A stretch of 35,111 bases of DNA, taken from Alphaproteobacteria bacterium (lineage in GTDB: Bacteria; Pseudomonadota; Alphaproteobacteria; SMXP01). Positions 3,207 through 14,682 of the stretch are shown here, one piece after another; the stretch's first letter is position 1; each line of letters begins with the position of its first letter. Both the position numbers and the translations under genes were made by a program. The notes beneath the pieces are model-generated. The model worked only from the letters and a program-made list of their open reading frames with translations, was not told the DNA's origin and searched no databases. The stretch lies in assembly GCA_021774995.1 (NCBI GenBank), contig JAJFIM010000109.1:1-35111 (forward strand). The letters are read 5' to 3'.

Positions 3207-4036
3207 CTATTTCGCTTTTTCTAAATCTTCATGCTCAAAGGCGGAGGCCATGCGATCAATTTCTTTATTGGCCAGACCACCCGCGCAGTACCTTCGCGAT
3301 CAAAACGCCTGATAATCAGCACTGGCTTTTCTGCTATATTTTCCAGCCGCCAAACAGGGGTTTGAAGCCCCGCATTTTTCGCCAGTGTGAGCGCAACCGC
3401 CTCCCACACAACGATATTATATTCATCATCCTTTTTAGGAAATTTAGCGATGGCCAGATGCCCGTCTTTATCCCGCACAGATGCTTTTGGCCGCGCGCCG
3501 CCAAGAGAAGACCCCGGCGCAAGCAGGATTTTCAAATCCTCTGCTGTCTCATCATCATCTAAAAATCTCTCAGAAGCGGATAATAATTTAGGCAAATCAA
3601 TGAGCGGTGGAATGCTTGTCGTATCTTTTGGGCTAAGATATGGCCCTTCCGGCGCAGCAGAAAACCGCAATGCCCCCTGGCGCGCCTCATCATTAACGCC
3701 AAGAAGATAATCCATCTCAAGAAGTGTCCTTGGTGTTTCATTATTTTCTTTGGCGCGCGCAGTTTCCCCGCGTCGCATCAAAACCCGCCCCCAGCGATCC
3801 GGCGCAGAATCTCCAATAGCGCCAAACAGCATTTGTCCCGCTTGCGTGTGAAACGCTCCTTCGGTGAGTTGCAAGGCAGGCTCTAGCGCAAATTTTTCCG
3901 GGTGGCTTAGCCAATTTTGATCATATTCAAACGTAGTGCTTTCCCGTCCGCCGCGCTGATGCCCCCATAATTTTCCTACAAGGTGGCATTCATCGCCAAG
4001 CTGAATGGAGACATAGACTTCTTTAGCGCTCATCAT
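3207..4036 (-). pseudogene. hipA: HipA-like kinase toxin gene with internal deletion
   Basis: N-terminal ~250 aa is HipA-like (QLGDECHLVGKLW...SSLGGARPKASVRDKDGHLAIAKFPKKDDEYNIVVWEAVALTLAKNAGL...LIIRRFDREGTAR). It then shifts frame to GGLANKEIDRMASAFEHEDLEKAK*, a HipA-like C-terminus. Confidence 0.75.
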
Positions 4037-4364
4037 CGCCTCCCGGCTTTTTGTTTCGCGGCAATCTCACGCGCTTTGGCAAATTTTCTTCCTCAAGCGC
4101 CCGCCCGACCAGATCATGACTGGCATCCGCCAGATCACGCAAATTATCCGTCAAACCCAACACAAACAGCGCCGAAGCATAAGCTCCCATGGATACAGAC
4201 GGTTCGCCTTTCTCAATTTTTGAAAGCGTTATGCGCGAAAACCCGGCGCGCTCGGCCATAAGCTCCATCGTAATGCGGCGACGACGGCGAGCATCACTGA
4301 TATCCTGACCCAGCTTGCGCAAAGCCTTTTTCATGGGAATAGCTAAATGTATCTTACGGCTCAT
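4023..4364 (-). CDS. hipB: HipB-like HTH (Xre) antitoxin
   Basis: LGQDISDARRRRRITMELMAERAGFSRITLSKIEKGEPSVSMGAYASAL; overlaps hipA by 14 nt. Confidence 0.8.
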   Translation of the reverse strand: MSRKIHLAIPMKKALRKLGQDISDARRRRRITMELMAERAGFSRITLSKIEKGEPSVSMGAYASALFVLGLTDNLRDLADASHDLVGRALEEENLPKRVRLPRNKKPGGDDER

Positions 4365-4374
4365 ATCGGCACCT

Positions 4375-4526
4375 TAATGTGTTTAATAGCATGCATTATT
4401 ACACTCAATGTTAACTATAAGGCGCATTAAGTAATTTTTCAAGCTTTTTTAGTTTAATGTAATCTATAGCAACCATTATGCCGCATTAAGTGCGTTATAA
4501 GGCACATTAAACTTTCCTACATTAAA
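4375..4526. promoter_or_regulatory. Repeated CATTAA-containing operator-like motifs upstream of hipB
   Basis: TATAAGGCGCATTAA (4416-4430), TTATGCCGCATTAAG (~4476-4490), TATAAGGCACATTAA (4496-4510), plus CTTAATGTG and ACATTAA variants. Confidence 0.5.
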
Positions 4527-4557
4527 ATTAGCGCTGCAAGTAAACTCTCAGTTTATC

Positions 4558-4685
4558 TGCAGAAAGAAATATGAGGATTGCAGAAAGAATCCAACGGAAA
4601 ATCACTTTAACCATTTGAAATTAAAGGAAAGTGGTCAAAAAATTGCAGAAAGAAAAAGTATAAATGCAGAAAGAATGCAGAAAGC
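4558..4685 (+). repeat. Five short direct repeats TGCAGAAAGAA/TGCAGAAAGC
   Basis: Starts at 4558, 4579, 4644, 4665 and 4676 (the last truncated to TGCAGAAAGC). Confidence 0.75.
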
Positions 4686-4736
4686 TTTTCGTGACTTTAC
4701 TGTTGAACACTAACATCAATATACTTGATATTAAGC

Positions 4737-5074
4737 TGTTGGTACCTAAACTTAAAAATGATTTAGGTTTTGGAAGCACTGAGTTCTTTGTTTTGCGTAG
4801 TAATACAAAAAGAATGCTTCCACGTCTCTTATTTCATATTACTAAATCAAAAGACTTCAGAGAAAAGGCAGAAAAAGCAATGACCGGTGCTTCTGGGCAT
4901 AGGCGTGTACCTAAATCTTTTGTTGAGAGCTATCCTATTCCTGATATACCTATATCGAAACAACAAAAAATTGTTTCTGAAATTGAAAACATAGAGAATA
5001 AAATTTCTGATCTACAAAATCAGTTAGATAGAATTCCAGAGAAGAAAAAAGAAGCTTTACAGAAATACCTTTAG
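4737..5074 (+). pseudogene. Type I restriction specificity subunit (HsdS)-like C-terminal fragment
   Basis: LGFGSTEFFVLR...SFVESYPIPDIPISKQQKIVSEIENIENKISDLQNQLDRIPEKKKEALQKYL; TRD end plus coiled-coil typical of HsdS, N-terminus absent. Confidence 0.6.
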
Positions 5075-5115
5075 TAAATTTACGATATATTTTTTCGCGA
5101 TTATCCCTTAATTGG

Positions 5116-5144
5116 TTGACATAATCACCAATCTACGCTATAAT
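5116..5144 (+). promoter_or_regulatory. Consensus sigma70 promoter for the IS1595 transposase
   Basis: TTGACA (5116-5121), 17 bp, TATAAT (5139-5144). Confidence 0.7.
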
Positions 5145-5169
5145 TAAAGTATAGGGAAGGTGATTATTT

Positions 5170-5802
5170 ATGAACATTATAGAAGTATTTGAAAAATTCC
5201 CAACACAAAAAGACTGTATTGAACATCTTGAAAAAATCAGATGGGCGGGCGGGATTTATTGCCCGTATTGCGGGGATTTAAACATCAACTCATATGACAA
5301 CGAAACCCGCCATCATTGTAACGGGTGCCGGAAATCTTTTTCCGTGACCGTGAACACCATCTTCCACGACACACGGCTTCCATTACAGAAATGGTTTCTG
5401 GCCATTGCGCTTATCTTGAACGCAAAGAAGGGAATATCAGCCAAACAATTGCAACGGGATTTGAGTGTCACATATAAAACTGCATGGTCAATGGGTCACA
5501 GAATTCGGGAAGGCATGAAAGACCAAGAGACTCTTTTGACTGGTATTGTAGAAATGGATGAAACATATGTCGGCGGCAAACCCAAGAAGGGAAGCAACAA
5601 AGACGGTGATGGAAATCTCATAAGCAAGCGCGGGCGCGGAACAAAGAAAATACCCGTTGTTGGCATGGTCGAGCGCGGTGGGAAGGTTAAAGCCGAAGTG
5701 AAGAATAAAGACCAACTGAAATTTAAAGATTTGTCGGAACTGGTGCGAAAGAATGTTGCACTTTTAGACGCGGTTCTGGTCACGGACGAATATCGCGGGT
5801 AG
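5170..5802 (+). pseudogene. IS1595 family transposase, C-terminally truncated
   Basis: Zinc-ribbon N-terminus (CPYCGDLN..CNGCRKSFSVTVNTIFHDTRLPLQKW) and DDE start (VEMDETYVGGKPKKG...LVTDEYRG*). The usual downstream H-x-N...IE..W..LK region is missing. Confidence 0.8.
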
Positions 5803-5958
5803 CTGGAGTCGCGCATATTGCTTTATCAAATAAAGCGCATCATCTTCTTTTTCGTACTCCTCAATATCATTGTCAAAAACATGAAGCGCGTCCACCCATT
5901 TTTGCAATGGCGTGCGGTATGTATTTTCTTGCCCGCGTTCTTGTTGCTGTTCTTGCAT
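5764..5958 (-). CDS. Small hypothetical protein, probably truncated by the IS junction
   Basis: MQEQQQERGQENTYRTPLQKWVDALHVFDNDIEEYEKEDDALYLIKQYARLQLP; AGGAG SD upstream. The C-terminal end runs into transposase sequence. Confidence 0.4.
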   Translation of the reverse strand: MQEQQQERGQENTYRTPLQKWVDALHVFDNDIEEYEKEDDALYLIKQYARLQLPAIFVRDQNRV

Positions 5959-6159
5959 TTCTCATATCTCCTTTTTTGTTTTGCAACAAGGGGAATTTGC
6001 CCCTCTCACTATTACTGGTATTCGGTTGCTGCAAAAAACGACGACGAAAAATGAAAAATATTTTTAGGATGTGAATATTCATCCATGAACGCCATAGATT
6101 TCTTGTGACATCAAGATAAATAGAATTGAAAAAGTCTTTTTGTCTTTTTGATTCCTTCC

Positions 6160-6190
6160 TGCGGGGGTAGGATTTGAACCTACGACCTTC
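6160..6190 (-). repeat. Degenerate tRNA-fMet 3'-end (att-like) remnant
   Basis: tgcgggggtaggatttgaacctacgaccttc: 30/31 identical to 14610-14640 of the intact tRNA-fMet. Confidence 0.7.
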
Positions 6191-6643
6191 CGCAAAGCAG
6201 CCGGACTGGAGGACGTGCGCATCCACGATTTGCGCCACAGCTTCGCCTCATACGCCGTCTCCGCCGGGCATTCCCTGCCGATGATCGGAAAACTCCTCGG
6301 CCACACCCAAGTGCAAACCACCGCCCGCTACGCGCATTTGATGACAGACCCGATGCATAAAGCGGCGGATGATATTGTGGGGAATATGGCTCGACACTTT
6401 ATTACCTGGCTGCCGCTAAGTAAGGCACATGCACGCAAGATTGAACCGGATGGGGATGGTGCGATTATCCTGACTTGGCAAACGGATCAAGAGCGTATTA
6501 TGCTTACGATAGATGGAAGTCTGATTCACCTCTCTCACGAACAAACGGGGCAAGATACTGTATTTGTAAATGATGTCCCGTTCTTTGATCAAGATGATAG
6601 AATACTTCCCAGCAGGATAATTGATCGTATCCCAAGAGTTTAG
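6191..6643 (+). pseudogene. Tyrosine recombinase/integrase C-terminal fragment with C-terminal extension
   Basis: KAAGLEDVRIHDLRHSFASYAVSAGHSLPMIGKLLGHTQVQTTARYAHL (HxxR...Y motifs). No N-terminal region; starts abruptly at the tRNA remnant. Confidence 0.8.
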
Positions 6644-6661: not shown

Positions 6662-6950
6662 TTGACATTGAGAGCTGTTGCCATCAATGATGACGATGAA
6701 GTTAGTCGCTTGGTATTCAGACCAAAGGACTTTCTTGACGGTATTGGCCCTTTGAAGATCTCAAAACATTTATACTTCAATGAGAAGCATAATTATAAAG
6801 AGTCCGTGAATTGCCGCAGGCTTGTAACGAATTATCCTAAAGACTTGCACCAGCAAGGACATGAAAAAGCTGCTAACGATAGCAGCAAAAAGAAACAAGA
6901 AGGTAAGGATCCCGTGACCTATGAAGGGTTCGTTTCTATAGGGGTTGGAA
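6662..6950 (+). CDS. Hypothetical protein (TTG start), 3' end uncertain
   Basis: TLRAVAINDDDEVSRLVFRPKDFLDGIGPLKISKHLYFNEKHNYKESV...; follows the integrase fragment by 18 nt. The ORF tail to 7000 overlaps the AbiEii fragment on the opposite strand. Confidence 0.35.
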
Positions 6951-7172
6951 GCGTGGCGATAAATCCTGTTTTTATATCGTCGGAGAAGCCTTCATTCTGA
7001 AAAAGGTGGTACACATCAAATAAATCACGCGGATGCTGACGATCCAGTGCAGCACAAATCTTTCCGCCGAACAATTCCTGATGAGAGACAACCTTTATAG
7101 CCGCAAACTTCCCAAATTCATCCTGAACGGCATCAGCAACGGACATCATGCGGACCGGCCATAAATGGGCGG
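6945..7172 (-). pseudogene. AbiEii-like nucleotidyltransferase, middle fragment
   Basis: HLWPVRMMSVADAVQDEFGKFAAIKVVSHQELFGGKICAALDRQHPRDLFDVYHLFQNEGFSDDIKTGFIATL; lacks N- and C-terminal parts. Bounds approximate. Confidence 0.7.
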
Positions 7173-7174
7173 CT

Positions 7175-7699
7175 GATATATTGCCCCAGTTGCACTTTCT
7201 CAAAAATGAAGCTGTCGAAATTGACGGCGTTCATTTTTTCGGTGGCACAATGTGGACCAATTTCAACAATGAAAATCCGCTGGCGATGCAGATTGCCCGG
7301 CGGGGCATGAGCGATTTCAGACTGATATACAAAGATGATGGCAGCCATTTTATGCCCGAAGACACATTGTCACTGCATCGGGATTACACTGAAAAGCTAC
7401 TTTCATGGTTTGAAACGGGGCTATCAGGGCCGCGCGTTGTCATCTCTCATCATGCGCCGGTCGTTAATTCGAACACCCAGTACGTAAACACCCCGCTCAT
7501 GCCTGCTTTTAATTCTCTGGATATGATTGAAATCATTGAAAGGCATCAGCCCGATCTCTGGGTTTACGGCCACACACATGAGTGCGATGACCAGAAGATC
7601 GGCAAAACTAGGATTATTTCCAACCAGCTTGGCTACCCTCATCGCACAGGGTTTGAATGTGCCGGTTTTGATCCGGCGGGAAAGCCTGTGGATTTATAA
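7175..7699 (+). pseudogene. Calcineurin-like metallophosphoesterase, N-terminally truncated
   Basis: LPQLHFLKNEAVEIDGVHFFGGTMW...VVISHHAPV...PDLWVYGHTHECDDQKIGKTRIISNQLGYP; homologous to 9349-10119 but missing the first ~90 aa. Confidence 0.8.
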
Positions 7700-8647
7700 T
7701 TTTTTGATATGATCTCGAATAATGCTCAATACATCTCCAAAAGCGGGCTGACCACGATAATAAAGGCCCCGGCGTTTTTCGTATTCCTGCTTATATAGCG
7801 CATGTGTATTTCTATCTCTGAGCAAAAATGCCTCATTCTCATATAAAGGAACTTTAAGGTCAGCCTTTGGAAACCGCTTTTCTTTATGACTTTCATAGGC
7901 TGGCGTGCCGATGAACTCTAAAACGGACTTATTTTGAAGCAAACAATAGACATCATAATAATGCCGCATAAAGTTTTCGGGAAATCCGCCTTGTTCCTGC
8001 TGCTTTCGATATTTTGTAGCAATCGTTTGCAGTTTTTCAACCAATGTGTAGCCGGGATCATAGCATAAAATGTCACGAGCCCTATTATCCAATACAGCCA
8101 CATTTCGCTCAATCGCAAAATCTAATGCCCAGGATGAAATATCGACCGCATGGTTAGGAGCCACATCGTCAAACCCGGCTTCAAGCAATACGCCGTCTTT
8201 TGCAGTGCCATCTGAGGCGAAGTGCGCTTGATAAAAAAGCCTGATACCGCCGCTAAAATATTTTGGGATGCCATCGAATAGCGTATCACGGTCTGCTCTT
8301 AGAACACCTGGGATTGTAATTGTTTGCGCAAGATAATCATAAAAATCCTTACGGCTTTGGCGGTGCTGTTCCTTATCCTGATTTTTTAGAGTTTTGACAT
8401 CCATATCTTTTGGCGGACTGATATGAATATCAATATCCTCAGAAAAGCGGTCTATAATACCAAACCCTTTTGAAAGCGATGTCCCACCCTTTAACTGAAA
8501 ATCGTATCCCGCCTGTTTCAGACCAAAAAGGCAGTGCATGATCCAATAGTCTTTCTCCGCCAGATACGGATCTATGCCTTGCTCTGCCGCAACTGTGCGT
8601 ATCAGATCTGTAAATTCTGGATGATCGTGTAAAAAAGGATCAGGCAT
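7694..8647 (-). CDS. AbiEii/AbiGii-type nucleotidyltransferase toxin
   Basis: MPDPFLHDHPEFTDLIRTVAAEQGIDPYLAEKDYWIMHCLFGLKQAGYDFQLKGGTSLSKGFGIIDRFSEDIDIHI: GGTSLSK and SEDIDI nucleotidyltransferase motifs. Confidence 0.85.
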   Translation of the reverse strand: MPDPFLHDHPEFTDLIRTVAAEQGIDPYLAEKDYWIMHCLFGLKQAGYDFQLKGGTSLSKGFGIIDRFSEDIDIHISPPKDMDVKTLKNQDKEQHRQSRKDFYDYLAQTITIPGVLRADRDTLFDGIPKYFSGGIRLFYQAHFASDGTAKDGVLLEAGFDDVAPNHAVDISSWALDFAIERNVAVLDNRARDILCYDPGYTLVEKLQTIATKYRKQQEQGGFPENFMRHYYDVYCLLQNKSVLEFIGTPAYESHKEKRFPKADLKVPLYENEAFLLRDRNTHALYKQEYEKRRGLYYRGQPAFGDVLSIIRDHIKKL

Positions 8648-9221
8648 CGGCAAGTACACTTTCAAAGAATTTCTTGCTTCTGACCCCGGCGTAATCACGC
8701 ACAGCTTTCATCAGTTTTTGCTGATCCATTGAGCGTGCTTTTTTAGCAACGTTATCTTTCAACTTTTCTTTATCCTCCGCTAAAAAATCAAGATTATTCA
8801 TCAGATCAACCAGTAAGAATTCAGGGCTGGCGGTTTTTGGAAAGCGAGGCCGCTTTACAAAGAAAAAAGGGCGTCCGGCCAGCGTAAAATGTCCATCACG
8901 TTTATGATTATACACAAGCCTTTCATTATATAGCTGAGTCGTACCAACGCCCAAAGAATTATAAGCATTTAGTGACGCCAGATAAAAGTTGTCCTCTTTT
9001 AAGAAGGTGCTCACCAGCTTTTCATCGTCTGGCGGAACAGCCCCAAAGGAAGCCTTTTTAGGGTAGTAATAAACGCCATTCCTGAGCTTCTGGAGAGTGT
9101 TATCAGCCATAAGCAGCTGCAGGTGCCTGTCAACGGCGCTGCTAAAGCGTGCCAGATCAGCCCGCCGGTAGACCTGGCCGGGGCGAAGATGCTTTCTTAA
9201 TTGTACTACTGCATTGCTCAT
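8640..9221 (-). CDS. DUF6088/AbiEi-like antitoxin partner
   Basis: MSNAVVQLRKHLRPGQVYRRADLARFSSAVDRHLQLLMADNTLQKLRNGVYYYPKKASFGAVPP; overlaps the AbiEii start by 8 nt. Confidence 0.75.
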   Translation of the reverse strand: MSNAVVQLRKHLRPGQVYRRADLARFSSAVDRHLQLLMADNTLQKLRNGVYYYPKKASFGAVPPDDEKLVSTFLKEDNFYLASLNAYNSLGVGTTQLYNERLVYNHKRDGHFTLAGRPFFFVKRPRFPKTASPEFLLVDLMNNLDFLAEDKEKLKDNVAKKARSMDQQKLMKAVRDYAGVRSKKFFESVLADA

Positions 9222-9348
9222 AACTTCATTATAAGGAAAAATAGTTAAAAAATCAATTTTTTAGTCTAAAATTCATGCAAATATAGATTTGACTGTCCCT
9301 GCGAATGAAGCGTTCATCATCCAAAACGCTTCTAACGAAAGGGATCTC

Positions 9349-10119
9349 ATGAAAATACTCACCTACAGCGATGTGCATCTGGAATTCGGGCACAACTGGC
9401 ATCCACCGACTGATATTGACGGCGATGTCATGTTACTGGCCGGAGATATTGTCAGCTTTAAACATTATAACCCGCTTAAATTCCTGCTGAAGTTCTGGAA
9501 CAAGCCGGTGATCTACATTTCCGGCAATCACGAATATTATGACACCAATATGGACGTGGCCGAAAGAGTGGCTCTGGAATGGATCAGCCGGAAATTGCCA
9601 AATGTTCATTATCTGAAAAACAGCGCCATTAAAATTGACGGTGTTCATTTTTATGGCGGCACGATGTGGACGGATTTTGATGGCGGTAATTATCAGGCTA
9701 TGCGTTATGCGCAGGAATACATGAATGATTACTGGGTTATCCGCACCGATAAAGCGCAAAAACTAACGCCGGAAGATACACTCAAATTCCATGAGAAATA
9801 TGTTGAGAACCTGATTAAATGGTTTGAGGCTGATCTATCAGGGCCAAGGATTGTGTTATCACATCATGCGCCGATACCGGGGCCGACAGGATTAAACCGT
9901 CATGGGAACAGAGAGATTGAGCCCGCATACACATCCCGTGATATGATCAAAATCATCGATAAATATCAACCCGATCTTTGGGTGTACGGCCACACGCACC
10001 AACCCAATGATCAGACCTTTGGCAAAACCAGGATTATTTCCAACCCGCGCGGTTATGCCTTCAGGCACGAGTTGTGCGAAGGTTTCGACCCTTACGGCAA
10101 GCCGGTGGAGGTAAAATGA
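9349..10119 (+). CDS. Calcineurin-like metallophosphoesterase
   Basis: MKILTYSDVHLEFG...LLAGDIVS...ISGNHEYYDTN...LSHHAPIPG...VYGHTHQPNDQTFGKTRIISNPRGY. Confidence 0.85.
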   Translation: MKILTYSDVHLEFGHNWHPPTDIDGDVMLLAGDIVSFKHYNPLKFLLKFWNKPVIYISGNHEYYDTNMDVAERVALEWISRKLPNVHYLKNSAIKIDGVHFYGGTMWTDFDGGNYQAMRYAQEYMNDYWVIRTDKAQKLTPEDTLKFHEKYVENLIKWFEADLSGPRIVLSHHAPIPGPTGLNRHGNREIEPAYTSRDMIKIIDKYQPDLWVYGHTHQPNDQTFGKTRIISNPRGYAFRHELCEGFDPYGKPVEVK

Positions 10120-10322
10120 GCGAGAACGACAATCAGAAAACAAAACATATCCGGTTCAAAACCTATTGGATTATCCAGCGCGCCGTTGAAGAAGGCATAG
10201 CTTACGGCTTAAATCGGGCGCACAAACATACGGATAATCCCGATAATAATCATATCGCCCTGGAAATTGAACAGGCAGTAATGTCTGCGCTGGATGAGAT
10301 CATCGATTTTGAGAGAAGCTGA
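10116..10322 (+). CDS. Small hypothetical protein translationally coupled to the metallophosphoesterase
   Basis: ATGA overlap at 10116-10119; MSENDNQKTKHIRFKTYWIIQRAVEEGIAYGLNRAHKHTDNPDNNHIALEIEQAVMSALDEIIDFERS. Confidence 0.6.
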   Translation: MSENDNQKTKHIRFKTYWIIQRAVEEGIAYGLNRAHKHTDNPDNNHIALEIEQAVMSALDEIIDFERS

Positions 10323-10336
10323 GGCTATTTCTACAG

Positions 10337-10695
10337 TTAAGATGTGGTGCCGTTCAGTTTATCTTCCAGCGCATTCAGGAGATCTTTGTGTTTGTCGGGA
10401 TTCTGCCGGATCAGTTTTTGAATATTTTGCAGTTTCCACCGGATGGCAGGCATGTCTTTCAAGCCAGGGACCGGGAACAAATCCCAGTCCGGTTCCCCCT
10501 TTTTGAAACTGATCAAAAAACGCTTATCGTCATCATTAAGCGCTGAATGGATCTTGGCAATCAGCTCTTCCCGCGTGGCTTCGAATTGTTCATAAGTAAA
10601 GGGATCTGCTGTCATACCCGCGAATTTATGCTGGAATGCAGATCTCTGATCCAGAAAATTTGGATAGATCAATTCATTAATCGGCCTTCCGCCAC
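10337..10695 (-). pseudogene. AbiEii-like nucleotidyltransferase, C-terminal fragment
   Basis: GRPINELIYPNFLDQRSAFQHKFAGMTADPFTYEQFEATREELIAKIHSALNDDDKRFLISFKKGEPDWDLFPVPGLKDMPAIRWKLQNIQKLI. Confidence 0.7.
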
Positions 10696-10715
10696 CTAGA
10701 GCCGCCCGCTCCATA

Positions 10716-10889
10716 AGTGAAGATAATCATAGTTTTGATATTATTCATTCACCAATTAAAAATAATCAAGCACACTGTGATATAGAACTTACTTTTCCAG
10801 ACACAAAGCCACAAAAAGCGCAAAGAAATTTGATAATTCAAAAACTTGCCGAAGGGTTCTCAGAAATTTTAACGCCTGTACAGGCTTGA
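10716..10889 (+). pseudogene. Open C-terminal coding fragment without start codon
   Basis: Own reading: SEDNHSFDIIHSPIKNNQAHCDIELTFPDTKPQKAQRNLIIQKLAEGFSEILTPVQA*. 57 codons, no in-frame start; sits between AbiEii pieces. Confidence 0.35.
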
Positions 10890-10973
10890 TTATCCTCAAT
10901 AATATAACTGGATGTTTTCCTTTTTTCACGCCTTCATGCTGATGATGCAATCATCACAAAAGCAAGGTTTGAT

Positions 10974-11240
10974 ATGACCAGTCCCAATCTCTCCGCCGAT
11001 ATTGCCGAAATGCTGCTGGCCAAGGGCTATACCGAGGCGCCCAGCGATAATAAACAGTGGCGCATTTTCTTTCAGCCTGCGAGCATGGACACGCGCTGGT
11101 TCGTGCATGAGGGCGGGAAAGTCCGGCGTGGCAAAAGCGTTCATAATTCCACCGCGATCACGCAGGAAGCCCGCCGCATGCTGGGGCGCTACTGGCTGGA
11201 AAAACGCGGCGGCAACCTCTGCAACAGATGGCCGGGATGA
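10974..11240 (+). CDS. Hypothetical protein, C-terminus likely chimeric
   Basis: MTSPNLSADIAEMLLAKGYTEAPSDNKQWRIFFQPASMDTRWFVHEGGKVRRGKSVHNSTAITQEARRMLGRYWLEKRGG; the last residues overlap the AbiEii N-fragment junction. Confidence 0.45.
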   Translation: MTSPNLSADIAEMLLAKGYTEAPSDNKQWRIFFQPASMDTRWFVHEGGKVRRGKSVHNSTAITQEARRMLGRYWLEKRGGNLCNRWPG

Positions 11241-11543
11241 ACTGCATAATAACTTTGCTTCTGTGCCGTCAGTTTGTTCAAGGATTTGCGTATTGACTTC
11301 GGGCGCTGCTTTTCCCAGACGCTCCTTAATCCGGCGCAAGCCTGCAGCGATATTTTCCAGTCCCGTTTTTCTATCATCCAAAGGCAGATATGTAAGGTCT
11401 ATATCAACCGACAGGCGCGGCATATCTCGAATAAAAAGGTTAATCGCTGTGCCGCCCTTTAGCGCGAAAACTTCTTCCTCCGCCACATGCGGCAAAATTC
11501 GGAGAAGCAGGTCAACCTGTGCACGGTAGCGGGGATCAATCAT
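11230..11543 (-). pseudogene. AbiEii-like nucleotidyltransferase, N-terminal fragment
   Basis: MIDPRYRAQVDLLLRILPHVAEEEVFALKGGTAINLFIRDMPRLSVDIDLTYLPLDDRKTGLENIAAGLRRIKERLG...EAKLL; the ORF then continues in unrelated sequence to 10926. Confidence 0.75.
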
Positions 11544-12307
11544 ACGTTTGCCAGCTCCTCTGGTATGCTGATTTTGAATTTTGAGACATAAACACCGCCT
11601 TTAACGATAGCGCGGTCGCCAGTTCCCAGATCAAATCGGTCTGTATCAAGGAATGTCCGCCATTGATGCCCTGCTTTATCCGCCATATACAGGAACAAGC
11701 GCTTCACCTTCACTGACTTGCATGATTCCAGCAATTCCTGCAACAGCTTCGGACGTAAATTGGCAAGTCCTTCCATCAGTTGATAGCATTCCACCAGATC
11801 CATTCGTTCTGGCGCAAGATACAGGCATTCCAGTATTGCCCGTTCGGATGATGAAATACGGATAGTAAAATTTTGTTCCTGATGTTCGCTCAGCCCTATG
11901 TCTTCTGGCAAAAAGGAGGTTCGGATATATTCTAAGGGCGCACCCCATTCGTAATCAGAAAACCATTTCGGCAATGTTCGGCCAGTGCCAGAAAACAAAA
12001 AGATCGTCTCACCACCAAGCCGCACATAGCGGGCCGTACCTTGCCGCGACAGAGCCGTCAGCGCTCCTGCGTGAACCGGAAAGGCCAATTGCTCCTGCAG
12101 CGCACACAGCGCGCCTGGCCAGGCCACAGAATCATGCGGCCTTTTATAAGCGCCTGCACCCAACGAAGACAACCAGCCGCTCTTCCGGTATCTTTTCTGC
12201 AGATCGCGCGATATGCCATGCTGCTCCAGCCATCCGGCAAGAAAAGGAACACCGGATTTATGAGCCTCCAGCATATACTTTAATTTATCTTCTTTTTTGG
12301 TACTCAT
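11540..12307 (-). CDS. AbiEi family antitoxin (type IV TA)
   Basis: GISRDLQKRYRKSGWLSSLGAGAYKRPHDSVAWPGALCALQEQLAFPVHAGALTALSRQGTARYVRLGGETIFLFSG...SSERAILECLYLAPE; overlaps the AbiEii N-fragment start. Confidence 0.8.
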   Translation of the reverse strand: MSTKKEDKLKYMLEAHKSGVPFLAGWLEQHGISRDLQKRYRKSGWLSSLGAGAYKRPHDSVAWPGALCALQEQLAFPVHAGALTALSRQGTARYVRLGGETIFLFSGTGRTLPKWFSDYEWGAPLEYIRTSFLPEDIGLSEHQEQNFTIRISSSERAILECLYLAPERMDLVECYQLMEGLANLRPKLLQELLESCKSVKVKRLFLYMADKAGHQWRTFLDTDRFDLGTGDRAIVKGGVYVSKFKISIPEELANV

Positions 12308-12577
12308 AGTACCTATAATACAGTTTTTTTAATGAAAAGCCAGTTAAATAATCTGCTTCCAAAAACCTGAAGGTCGCATATTTCCGGCACCTAACGCATT
12401 GATTTTGCATGCGTGAATTATTCATAAAGTACAATAGGGTATTATTCCTAAGTCAATTTTCGCTTGTTTTCGAAGGGGTTGTCAGGAATTTGCTTCCGGA
12501 TTGCTTCCAAATCCGATGTAGGGTATCGATCTGCATCGCATCGAAATGACGGTTAAGTCATTGAAATATAAAGGAAA

Positions 12578-12627
12578 AAATTGGTTGCGGGAGTAGGATT
12601 TGAACCTACGACCTTCAGGTTATGAGC
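12578..12627 (-). repeat. Exact 50-bp copy of the tRNA-fMet 3' half (att-like direct repeat)
   Basis: aaattggttgcgggagtaggatttgaacctacgaccttcaggttatgagc, identical to 14602-14651; sequences diverge on both sides. Confidence 0.9.
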
Positions 12628-12923
12628 TTAAAAGGCCATATGCTAACCTATTGATTTTAAATGTAAAAATTGCCATTGACATATTAATGTGCGAACGCGT
12701 GTGCGACTGATTCGGCCTATTTTACAAGCCATTCCAAGCACTTGCTTGCTGAGCAACGATTTTCGAGTTTTTACTCAGAATTACGCTCTTCAGGTTTTTG
12801 ACTCGAAGGTCGCAGAGACGCCTAAAAACCTATGCGAATTCGAGTATATTTATACCACTTTATAAGAAAACCAATACTTTACAACAATGCAGTTTGTACG
12901 AATTTTTGTGCGAGAAATAAAAC

Positions 12924-14605: not shown

Positions 14606-14682
<77 letters not shown>

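What the first reader, a model, noticed from the sequence alone, without database searches (positions are those of the whole stretch)
6945..11543. One AbiEii toxin gene apparently scrambled into three separated, complementary pieces
Seen: an N-terminal piece (11543-~11230) next to an intact AbiEi, a C-terminal piece (~10695-10337), and a middle piece 3+ kb away (~7172-6945), all minus strand. The middle piece ends ...GFIATL and the C-piece begins GRPINELIYPNFLDQRSAF, which reads like adjacent stretches of one protein. Only ~20 aa seem missing between the N and middle pieces. Inference: either one gene was shuffled by rearrangement, or two copies suffered complementary deletions. The intact AbiEi antitoxin remains without a cognate toxin.
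Basis: partly seen in the sequence, partly recalled or inferred. Interest (0 to 1): 0.7.

Follow-up and report, generated by a model that had tools for sequence, protein, structure and literature searches.

The report
Toxin gene scrambled by block swap
In a tRNA-linked island of an uncultured bacterium, one toxin gene and an unrelated neighbouring gene have swapped their ends with near base-pair precision, probably because a small DNA circle popped out and went back in at another point, killing the toxin but leaving its antitoxin intact.

Summary
Three minus-strand pieces match one AbiEii subfamily and tile full-length homologues without overlap: N piece residues 1-100, middle (M) piece 117-190, C piece about 191-306. 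About 16 residues are missing between N and M and none between M and C. The cognate AbiEi_3 antitoxin is intact.

The ORF next to M's broken end (Z, 6662-6948 +) and the ORF next to C's broken end (X, 10700-10886 +) are the two halves of a second, unrelated gene. I predicted this from the junction layout and then found it: Z+X matches single genes in two other genomes. Exchanging block M (about 220 bp) with block X-Y (about 530 bp) restores both genes, in frame and with no net loss at that exchange. This is a block interchange, most simply excision of a circle (about 3.75-4 kb) and permuted reinsertion.

It lies in a decayed island with three tRNA-fMet-derived repeats and many truncated genes. 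The contig is from a 515-contig draft genome; no second assembly confirms the junctions. It is gene decay, not a new system; the base-resolved reciprocal exchange is unusual.

The parts
11540..12307 (-). AbiEi1, intact AbiEi_3-type antitoxin (255 aa), overlapping the abiEii start codon
   Evidence: PF17194 E 3e-32 and PF11459 E 2e-58, both full length; 51-58% identical to AbiEi of intact pairs L022-L030 and L033
11244..11543 (-). AbiEii1 N piece: homologue residues 1-100, NTase motifs I (GGTA) and II (DID); the frame reads on into foreign sequence to 10926
11228..11244 (.). Junction J1: Y fragment | N piece; 3' part of Y and about 16 codons of abiEii are absent
10974..11228 (+). Y: 5' part of a gene of unknown family, cut at J1
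   Evidence: no Pfam or PHROG hit; no homologue in 288 other genomes of the class, in plasmids or in viral contigs
10700..10886 (+). X: 3' half of the ZX gene
   Evidence: matches G065 ORF aa 79-139, shuffle z = 26
10699..10700 (.). Junction J2: C piece | X (exact to a few bp)
10337..10699 (-). AbiEii1 C piece: homologue residues about 191-306, to the stop codon
9289..10119 (+). MP-A: intact calcineurin-like phosphoesterase, convergent with abiEii
   Evidence: PF00149 E 8e-12
8640..9221 (-). AbiEi2, antitoxin of a second, different AbiE pair
   Evidence: PADLOC AbiEi PDLC02234 E 5e-81
7694..8647 (-). AbiEii2, intact second AbiEii of another subfamily
   Evidence: PF08843 E 4.5e-28; PADLOC AbiEii PDLC02289 E 6e-66
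7166..7699 (+). MP-B: phosphoesterase lacking its N-terminal ~80 residues
   Evidence: 64% identical to residues 81-261 of the 262-aa intact protein on C476; missing part not found elsewhere in the genome
7160..7168 (.). Junction J3: M piece | MP-B
6949..7167 (-). AbiEii1 M piece: homologue residues 117-190, NTase motifs III and IV
6948..6949 (.). Junction J4: Z | M piece; reciprocal partner of J2, with a 2-nt GA overlap
6662..6948 (+). Z: 5' half of the ZX gene
   Evidence: matches G065 ORF aa 5-69, shuffle z = 22, and G013
6407..6643 (+). U: 3' end of the gene that precedes ZX in the TIGR04255-U-ZX gene order
   Evidence: 31% identical to the 176-aa ORF upstream of ZX in G065 (L037) and 28% to that in G013 (L038)
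6192..6405 (+). Tyrosine-integrase C-terminal remnant abutting the tRNA-derived repeat
   Evidence: PF00589 E 3e-10, profile 119-168 of 172
6160..6190 (-). 31-nt copy of the tRNA-fMet 3' end (att-like)
12580..12629 (-). ~50-nt copy of the tRNA-fMet 3' end (att-like)
14606..14682 (-). Intact tRNA-Met (CAT), reads as the initiator type; insertion site of the island
   Evidence: ARAGORN; alignment

Best explanation
A single abiEii gene of the AbiEi_3/AbiEii type, together with an unrelated neighbouring gene (ZX), was broken by a block interchange inside a decaying tRNA-fMet-linked island. The inferred ancestral + strand order is Z-X-Y-(lost)-MP-B-AbiE2-MP-A-C'-M'-(16 codons)-N'-AbiEi1' (a prime marks minus-strand genes). 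The present order is Z-M'-MP-B-AbiE2-MP-A-C'-X-Y-N'-AbiEi1'. The simplest path is two steps through a DNA circle: a segment is joined end to end and leaves, then re-enters opened at a different point. The abiEii(M|C) x ZX exchange is conservative at base level with a 2-nt overlap; the other pair of joins lost DNA (16 codons of abiEii, the 3' end of Y, the 5' end of MP-B). Either exchange could have come first. The result is a dead toxin, because motifs I-II and III-IV are on separate pieces, and an intact, presumably autoregulatory, orphan AbiEi. Shown: the piece map, complementarity and in-frame restoration of two genes by one swap. Inferred: the circle, the order of steps and the enzymes.
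For: The three pieces tile one homologue with no overlap and no gap at M|C. Concatenated they align end to end to single genes, 57% over residues 1-279. The junction layout predicted that Z and X are halves of one gene. Z+X then matched single genes in G065 (50%) and G013 (34%), and each half is independently significant. Under a conservative cut at 6948|10700 and 10699|6949 both reading frames are restored, with residue counts equal to the homologues. All blocks keep their orientation, as circle excision and reinsertion predicts and inversions do not. The contig has no Ns. Truncated genes cluster in the island, about 3.2-14.2 kb, while the ORFs from about 14.8 kb on look intact. Each AbiEii motif I-IV was needed for toxicity in PMC3985639.
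Against: No relative holding the unbroken order was found: the same-genus genome lacks this DNA, and there is no second assembly and no reads. ZX has only two homologues, with 1-4 residue indels nearby, so zero net loss rests on few sequences. The missing 5' part of MP-B and 3' part of Y are not seen elsewhere, so the second join pair cannot be checked for reciprocity. No recombinase or repeat long enough to drive the exchange was identified at the junctions.
Confidence: 0.6

Rival explanations
1. Assembly or library artefact: the organism has the unbroken order, and small contigs or chimeric reads (for example from whole-genome amplification) were joined in the wrong order.
For: The genome is a 515-contig draft, 84% complete with 4% contamination. 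The misplaced blocks are short (about 220 and 530 bp). One exchange is conservative, as graph misjoins are. No independent copy of any junction was found.
Against: No Ns and no repeat near the junctions longer than 8 bases, far below an assembly k-mer; a graph misjoin would leave its repeat at both junctions. Sequence was lost at two junctions, and other gene truncations cluster in the same tRNA-linked island.
Confidence: 0.25
2. Shattering and re-ligation: several double-strand breaks at about the same time, with fragments rejoined in a new order by end joining, without a circle.
For: Four breakpoints within 4.3 kb. Loss at N|M and at Y|MP-B is typical of end joining. Inverted 8-bp words lie at J3/J2 and J3/J1.
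Against: All fragments keep their orientation (chance 1 in 8 for three free fragments), and the abiEii x ZX exchange shows no net loss or gain.
Confidence: 0.15
3. Two copies of abiEii existed, and each suffered deletions that happen to be complementary.
For: Two phosphoesterase copies and two AbiE modules in the same place show that similar modules do accumulate here.
Against: The cut ends meet without overlap or gap at M|C, and the other sides of those junctions are the matching halves of one gene, ZX. The two phosphoesterases are only about 52% identical, so they are not a recent tandem duplicate carrying abiEii.
Confidence: 0.05
4. A series of inversions produced the same order.
For: Inverted 8-mers occur at junction pairs J3/J2 and J3/J1.
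Against: About four inversions sharing breakpoints would be needed to bring every block back to its original orientation. Inverting between those 8-mers does not bring the abiEii pieces together.
Confidence: 0.04

Closest known systems
AbiE type IV toxin-antitoxin system (AbiEi_3 / AbiEii, DUF1814; PMC3985639)
   Same: Bicistronic order with overlapping start and stop codons, both AbiEi domains present, AbiEii pieces with motifs I-IV, roughly 46-73% identity per piece to most intact homologues.
   Different: The toxin is in three displaced pieces with about 16 residues lost, so it cannot be functional; only the antitoxin is intact.
Block interchange in the double-cut-and-join model (PMC2614205)
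   Same: Two non-adjacent blocks exchange places with orientation kept, which fits circle excision plus permuted reinsertion; the diagnostic adjacencies described in that paper are met for one exchange.
   Different: That paper treats it as a formal operation not represented in the biological rearrangement literature. Here it is seen at kilobase scale, near base resolution, inside genes, with DNA loss at the second exchange.
Integrative elements / genomic islands at tRNA genes
   Same: Intact tRNA-fMet, two further direct copies of its 3' end, and an integrase remnant next to one of them.
   Different: The integrase is a C-terminal remnant and the cargo is largely truncated genes; no sign that it is still mobile.
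Orphan antitoxins left by toxin loss
   Same: AbiEi remains intact while AbiEii is destroyed. A second AbiEi in this genome (C476) also lacks its toxin.
   Different: Here the toxin was destroyed by rearrangement, with most of it still recognisable.

Membership tests
AbiE type IV TA (AbiEi_3/AbiEii) | AbiEi with N-terminal wHTH domain and C-terminal antitoxin domain | tested here: met
   PF17194 2-93/93 and PF11459 2-157/157
AbiE type IV TA (AbiEi_3/AbiEii) | AbiEii with NTase motifs I-IV in one contiguous ORF | tested here: not met
   Motifs I-II in the N piece (11543-11244), III-IV in the M piece (7167-6949), about 4 kb apart
AbiE type IV TA (AbiEi_3/AbiEii) | Bicistronic operon, antitoxin first | tested here: met
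   AbiEi stop overlaps AbiEii ATG at 11540-11543
AbiE type IV TA (AbiEi_3/AbiEii) | Inverted repeats in the promoter bound by AbiEi | tested here: inconclusive
   Only an imperfect 11-nt repeat at the start codon, 12294-12318
Block interchange via a circle | Swapping two blocks restores two or more broken genes | tested here: met
   abiEii (except 16 codons) and ZX
Block interchange via a circle | All blocks keep orientation | tested here: met
   Piece strands
Block interchange via a circle | Unbroken order present in a close relative | tested here: inconclusive
   No close relative carries the region
Block interchange via a circle | Circle or its joint detected | not testable with these tools
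   No reads available
tRNA-integrated element | Direct repeat of the tRNA 3' end at both borders | tested here: met
   14606-14682, 12580-12629, 6160-6190
tRNA-integrated element | Complete integrase | tested here: not met
   Only profile positions 119-168 of 172 remain

The most novel reading that the evidence does not exclude
The 3.75-kb segment between J4 and J2, which carries the intact AbiE2 pair and a phosphoesterase, integrated as a circle through a site-specific, conservative exchange with a 2-bp overlap. The crossover point in abiEii is the centre of an inverted repeat (6-bp arms, 8-bp spacer), as a recombinase core would be. Defence modules in this genome would then be shuffled by an unrecognised circle-forming recombination that lands inside genes.
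Probability: 0.07. Interest if true: 0.75.

Novelty: new variant of a known kind. Interest (0 to 1): 0.45.

Why it matters
If real, it is a near base-resolved natural example of a block interchange, a rearrangement that PMC2614205 describes as formal and not represented in the biological rearrangement literature. It also shows how a toxin can be destroyed within a defence island while its antitoxin stays. As a practical lesson, apparent gene fragments scattered in islands can sometimes be put back into order by asking what sits on the other side of each break.

Tried and rejected
Circular permutation of the whole island at its tRNA repeats: gives only the cyclic order N-C-M, never N-M-C. Inversion between J2 and J4: would fuse Z to C and M to X, not M to C. 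Y and MP-B as one gene: Y has no similarity to the phosphoesterase N-terminus, and the missing part of MP-B was not found elsewhere in the genome. Homologues of Y: none in 288 other class genomes, plasmids or viral contigs. A second copy of junction J3 in viral contigs: none; AbiEi1 relatives there: none. HipA C-terminal part on contig C447 as the missing end of the window's HipA: rejected, since the window copy retains its own C-terminal tail after an internal deletion (sequence, ORF). DNA copies of the island elsewhere in the genome: only distant phosphoesterase matches on C476 and tRNA-like matches. More ZX homologues in the phylum: none.
Full report
WHAT WAS CHECKED. The window is contig C12, complete at 35,111 bases, of a 515-contig draft genome (84% complete, 4% contamination). 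PF08843 finds three AbiEii matches in the genome, all in this window: a full one (8521-7730), an N-terminal one (11510-11277) and a middle one (7170-6949), all on the minus strand. The C piece (10699-10337) has no Pfam hit but is unmistakable against full-length homologues.

ONE GENE, THREE PIECES. A query made of the three pieces in the order N-M-C found 13 full-length relatives, mostly in Bacteroidales/Bacteroidota assemblies, the best with 57% identity over query residues 1-279. Aligned separately to the best of these (L022), N covers residues 1-100 (64% identity), M 118-190 (71%) and C 189-306 (56%); the other relatives agree. The pieces do not overlap beyond a residue or two. About 16 residues are missing between N and M, and none between M and C. 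All pieces are on one strand with comparable identity, so they belong to one subfamily and fit one gene. In all the relatives a homologue of AbiEi1 lies just upstream of the toxin gene, except in L031, where none was found.

A SECOND GENE WAS BROKEN BY THE SAME EVENT. The + strand order is: Z (6662-6948), M' (6949-7167), MP-B to C' (7166-10699), X and Y (10700-11228), N', AbiEi1' (a prime marks minus-strand genes). If M and C were once adjacent and one reciprocal exchange separated them, the sequences on the far sides of those junctions, Z and X, should also once have been adjacent. Joined, they match a single 139-residue ORF in genome G065 (50% identity, query 7-155 of 157) and a single ORF in G013 (34%). 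Separately, Z matches residues 5-69 and X residues 79-139 of the G065 ORF, with shuffle z-scores of 22 and 26. In G065 and G013 the ZX gene follows a 176-187-residue ORF (U) and, in front of that, a third gene, which in G065 is of the TIGR04255 family. In the window the end of U lies just upstream of Z, as expected. So ZX is a real gene, broken exactly where abiEii was broken.

PRECISION. With a cut at 6948|10700 and 10699|6949 the exchange restores the reading frames of both genes and the residue counts of their homologues, with no net gain or loss and a shared dinucleotide GA at the crossover. Simultaneous frame restoration alone would occur one time in three; the ungapped alignments carry more weight. 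The other two junctions are not conservative: 16 codons of abiEii, the 3' part of Y and the N-terminal ~80 residues of MP-B are absent, and the MP-B part was not found elsewhere in the genome.

MECHANISM. The present order differs from the inferred ancestral order by exchange of two blocks, M' and X-Y, around a central block that stays in place, with orientation kept. In the double-cut-and-join model this is a block interchange: excision of a circle and its reinsertion opened at another point (PMC2614205). Two paths are equivalent: (a) the X-to-C' segment left first by the conservative exchange and re-entered between M and N with loss; or (b) a segment left between Y and N' with loss, closing M to MP-B, and the resulting circle of about 3.75 kb then entered ZX conservatively. 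I cannot tell these apart. The enzymes are unknown. Two hints are recorded but not relied on. The reconstructed abiEii crossover sits at the exact centre of a 6-bp inverted repeat with an 8-bp spacer; only 0.2% of positions in the island have such symmetric arms. Inverted 8-bp words shared by J3/J2 and by J3/J1 lie within a few bases of the breaks; two such pairs occur in 0.13% of random sets of four points, a test chosen after seeing the data.

SETTING. The region is a decayed island at tRNA-fMet. The intact tRNA is at 14606-14682. A ~50-nt copy of its 3' end is at 12580-12629 and a 31-nt copy at 6160-6190. An integrase C-terminal remnant abuts the last. Other genes in the island are also cut: HipA (internal deletion near 3275), HsdS (C-terminal part only), an IS1595 transposase (3' end missing) and U (C-terminal part only). 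The ORFs beyond about 14.8 kb look intact by inspection.

CONSEQUENCE. In AbiEii, motifs I-II and III-IV are each required for toxicity (mutations in PMC3985639). Here I-II are on the N piece and III-IV on the M piece, so no active toxin can be made (inference). AbiEi1 keeps both domains. An imperfect inverted repeat at its start codon is the only operator candidate seen. The intact AbiE2 pair between the pieces belongs to other PADLOC AbiE families.

ARTEFACT OR REAL. The contig has no Ns, and the longest words shared between the junction neighbourhoods are 8 bases, so a de Bruijn misjoin is not expected. Chimeric amplification or mis-ordered small contigs cannot be excluded: the same-genus genome lacks this DNA, and junction J3 and AbiEi1 were not found in viral contigs. 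I put the artefact probability at about one in four.

VERDICT. It is ordinary gene decay in outcome but unusual in form: a block interchange between two unrelated genes, conservative at one exchange.

Noticed in passing
L021 (G000:C476) 3998-6406: A second AbiEi_3 homologue (49% identical) in the same genome whose AbiEii is reduced to roughly its first 25 codons, running into the 3' end of a convergent HipA gene: another orphan AbiEi.
   Followed up: partly
window 14606-14682, 12580-12629, 6160-6190: Three tRNA-fMet-derived repeats suggest two tandem integrations at one tRNA; the 31-nt copy lacks the last tRNA bases and is fused to an integrase remnant.
   Followed up: partly
L037 1501-3235 and L038 140-1938: A conserved three-gene order in two relatives of the same class: a TIGR04255-like gene, ORF U (176-187 aa), ORF ZX (139-152 aa); function unknown, U and ZX of L037 without NCBIfam match.
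   Followed up: partly
window 3221-4364: HipB/HipA pair with an internal, frame-shifting deletion in HipA that leaves a HipA-like C-terminal tail (EIDRMASAFEHEDLEKAK) in another frame.
   Followed up: partly
window 7166-7699 and 9289-10119; L021 7342-8130: Three related calcineurin-like phosphoesterases near toxin-antitoxin modules in this genome; MP-A matches PADLOC candidate PDC-S10 (E 2.8e-16).
   Followed up: partly
window 5170-5958: IS1595-type transposase cut at about 5800 and joined tail to tail with the N-terminal part of a gene resembling L021 2862-3509.
   Followed up: no
window 7155-7174, 10699-10706, 11228-11235: Inverted 8-bp words shared by junction J3 with J2 and with J1, lying at or within a few bases of the breaks; unexplained.
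   Followed up: partly
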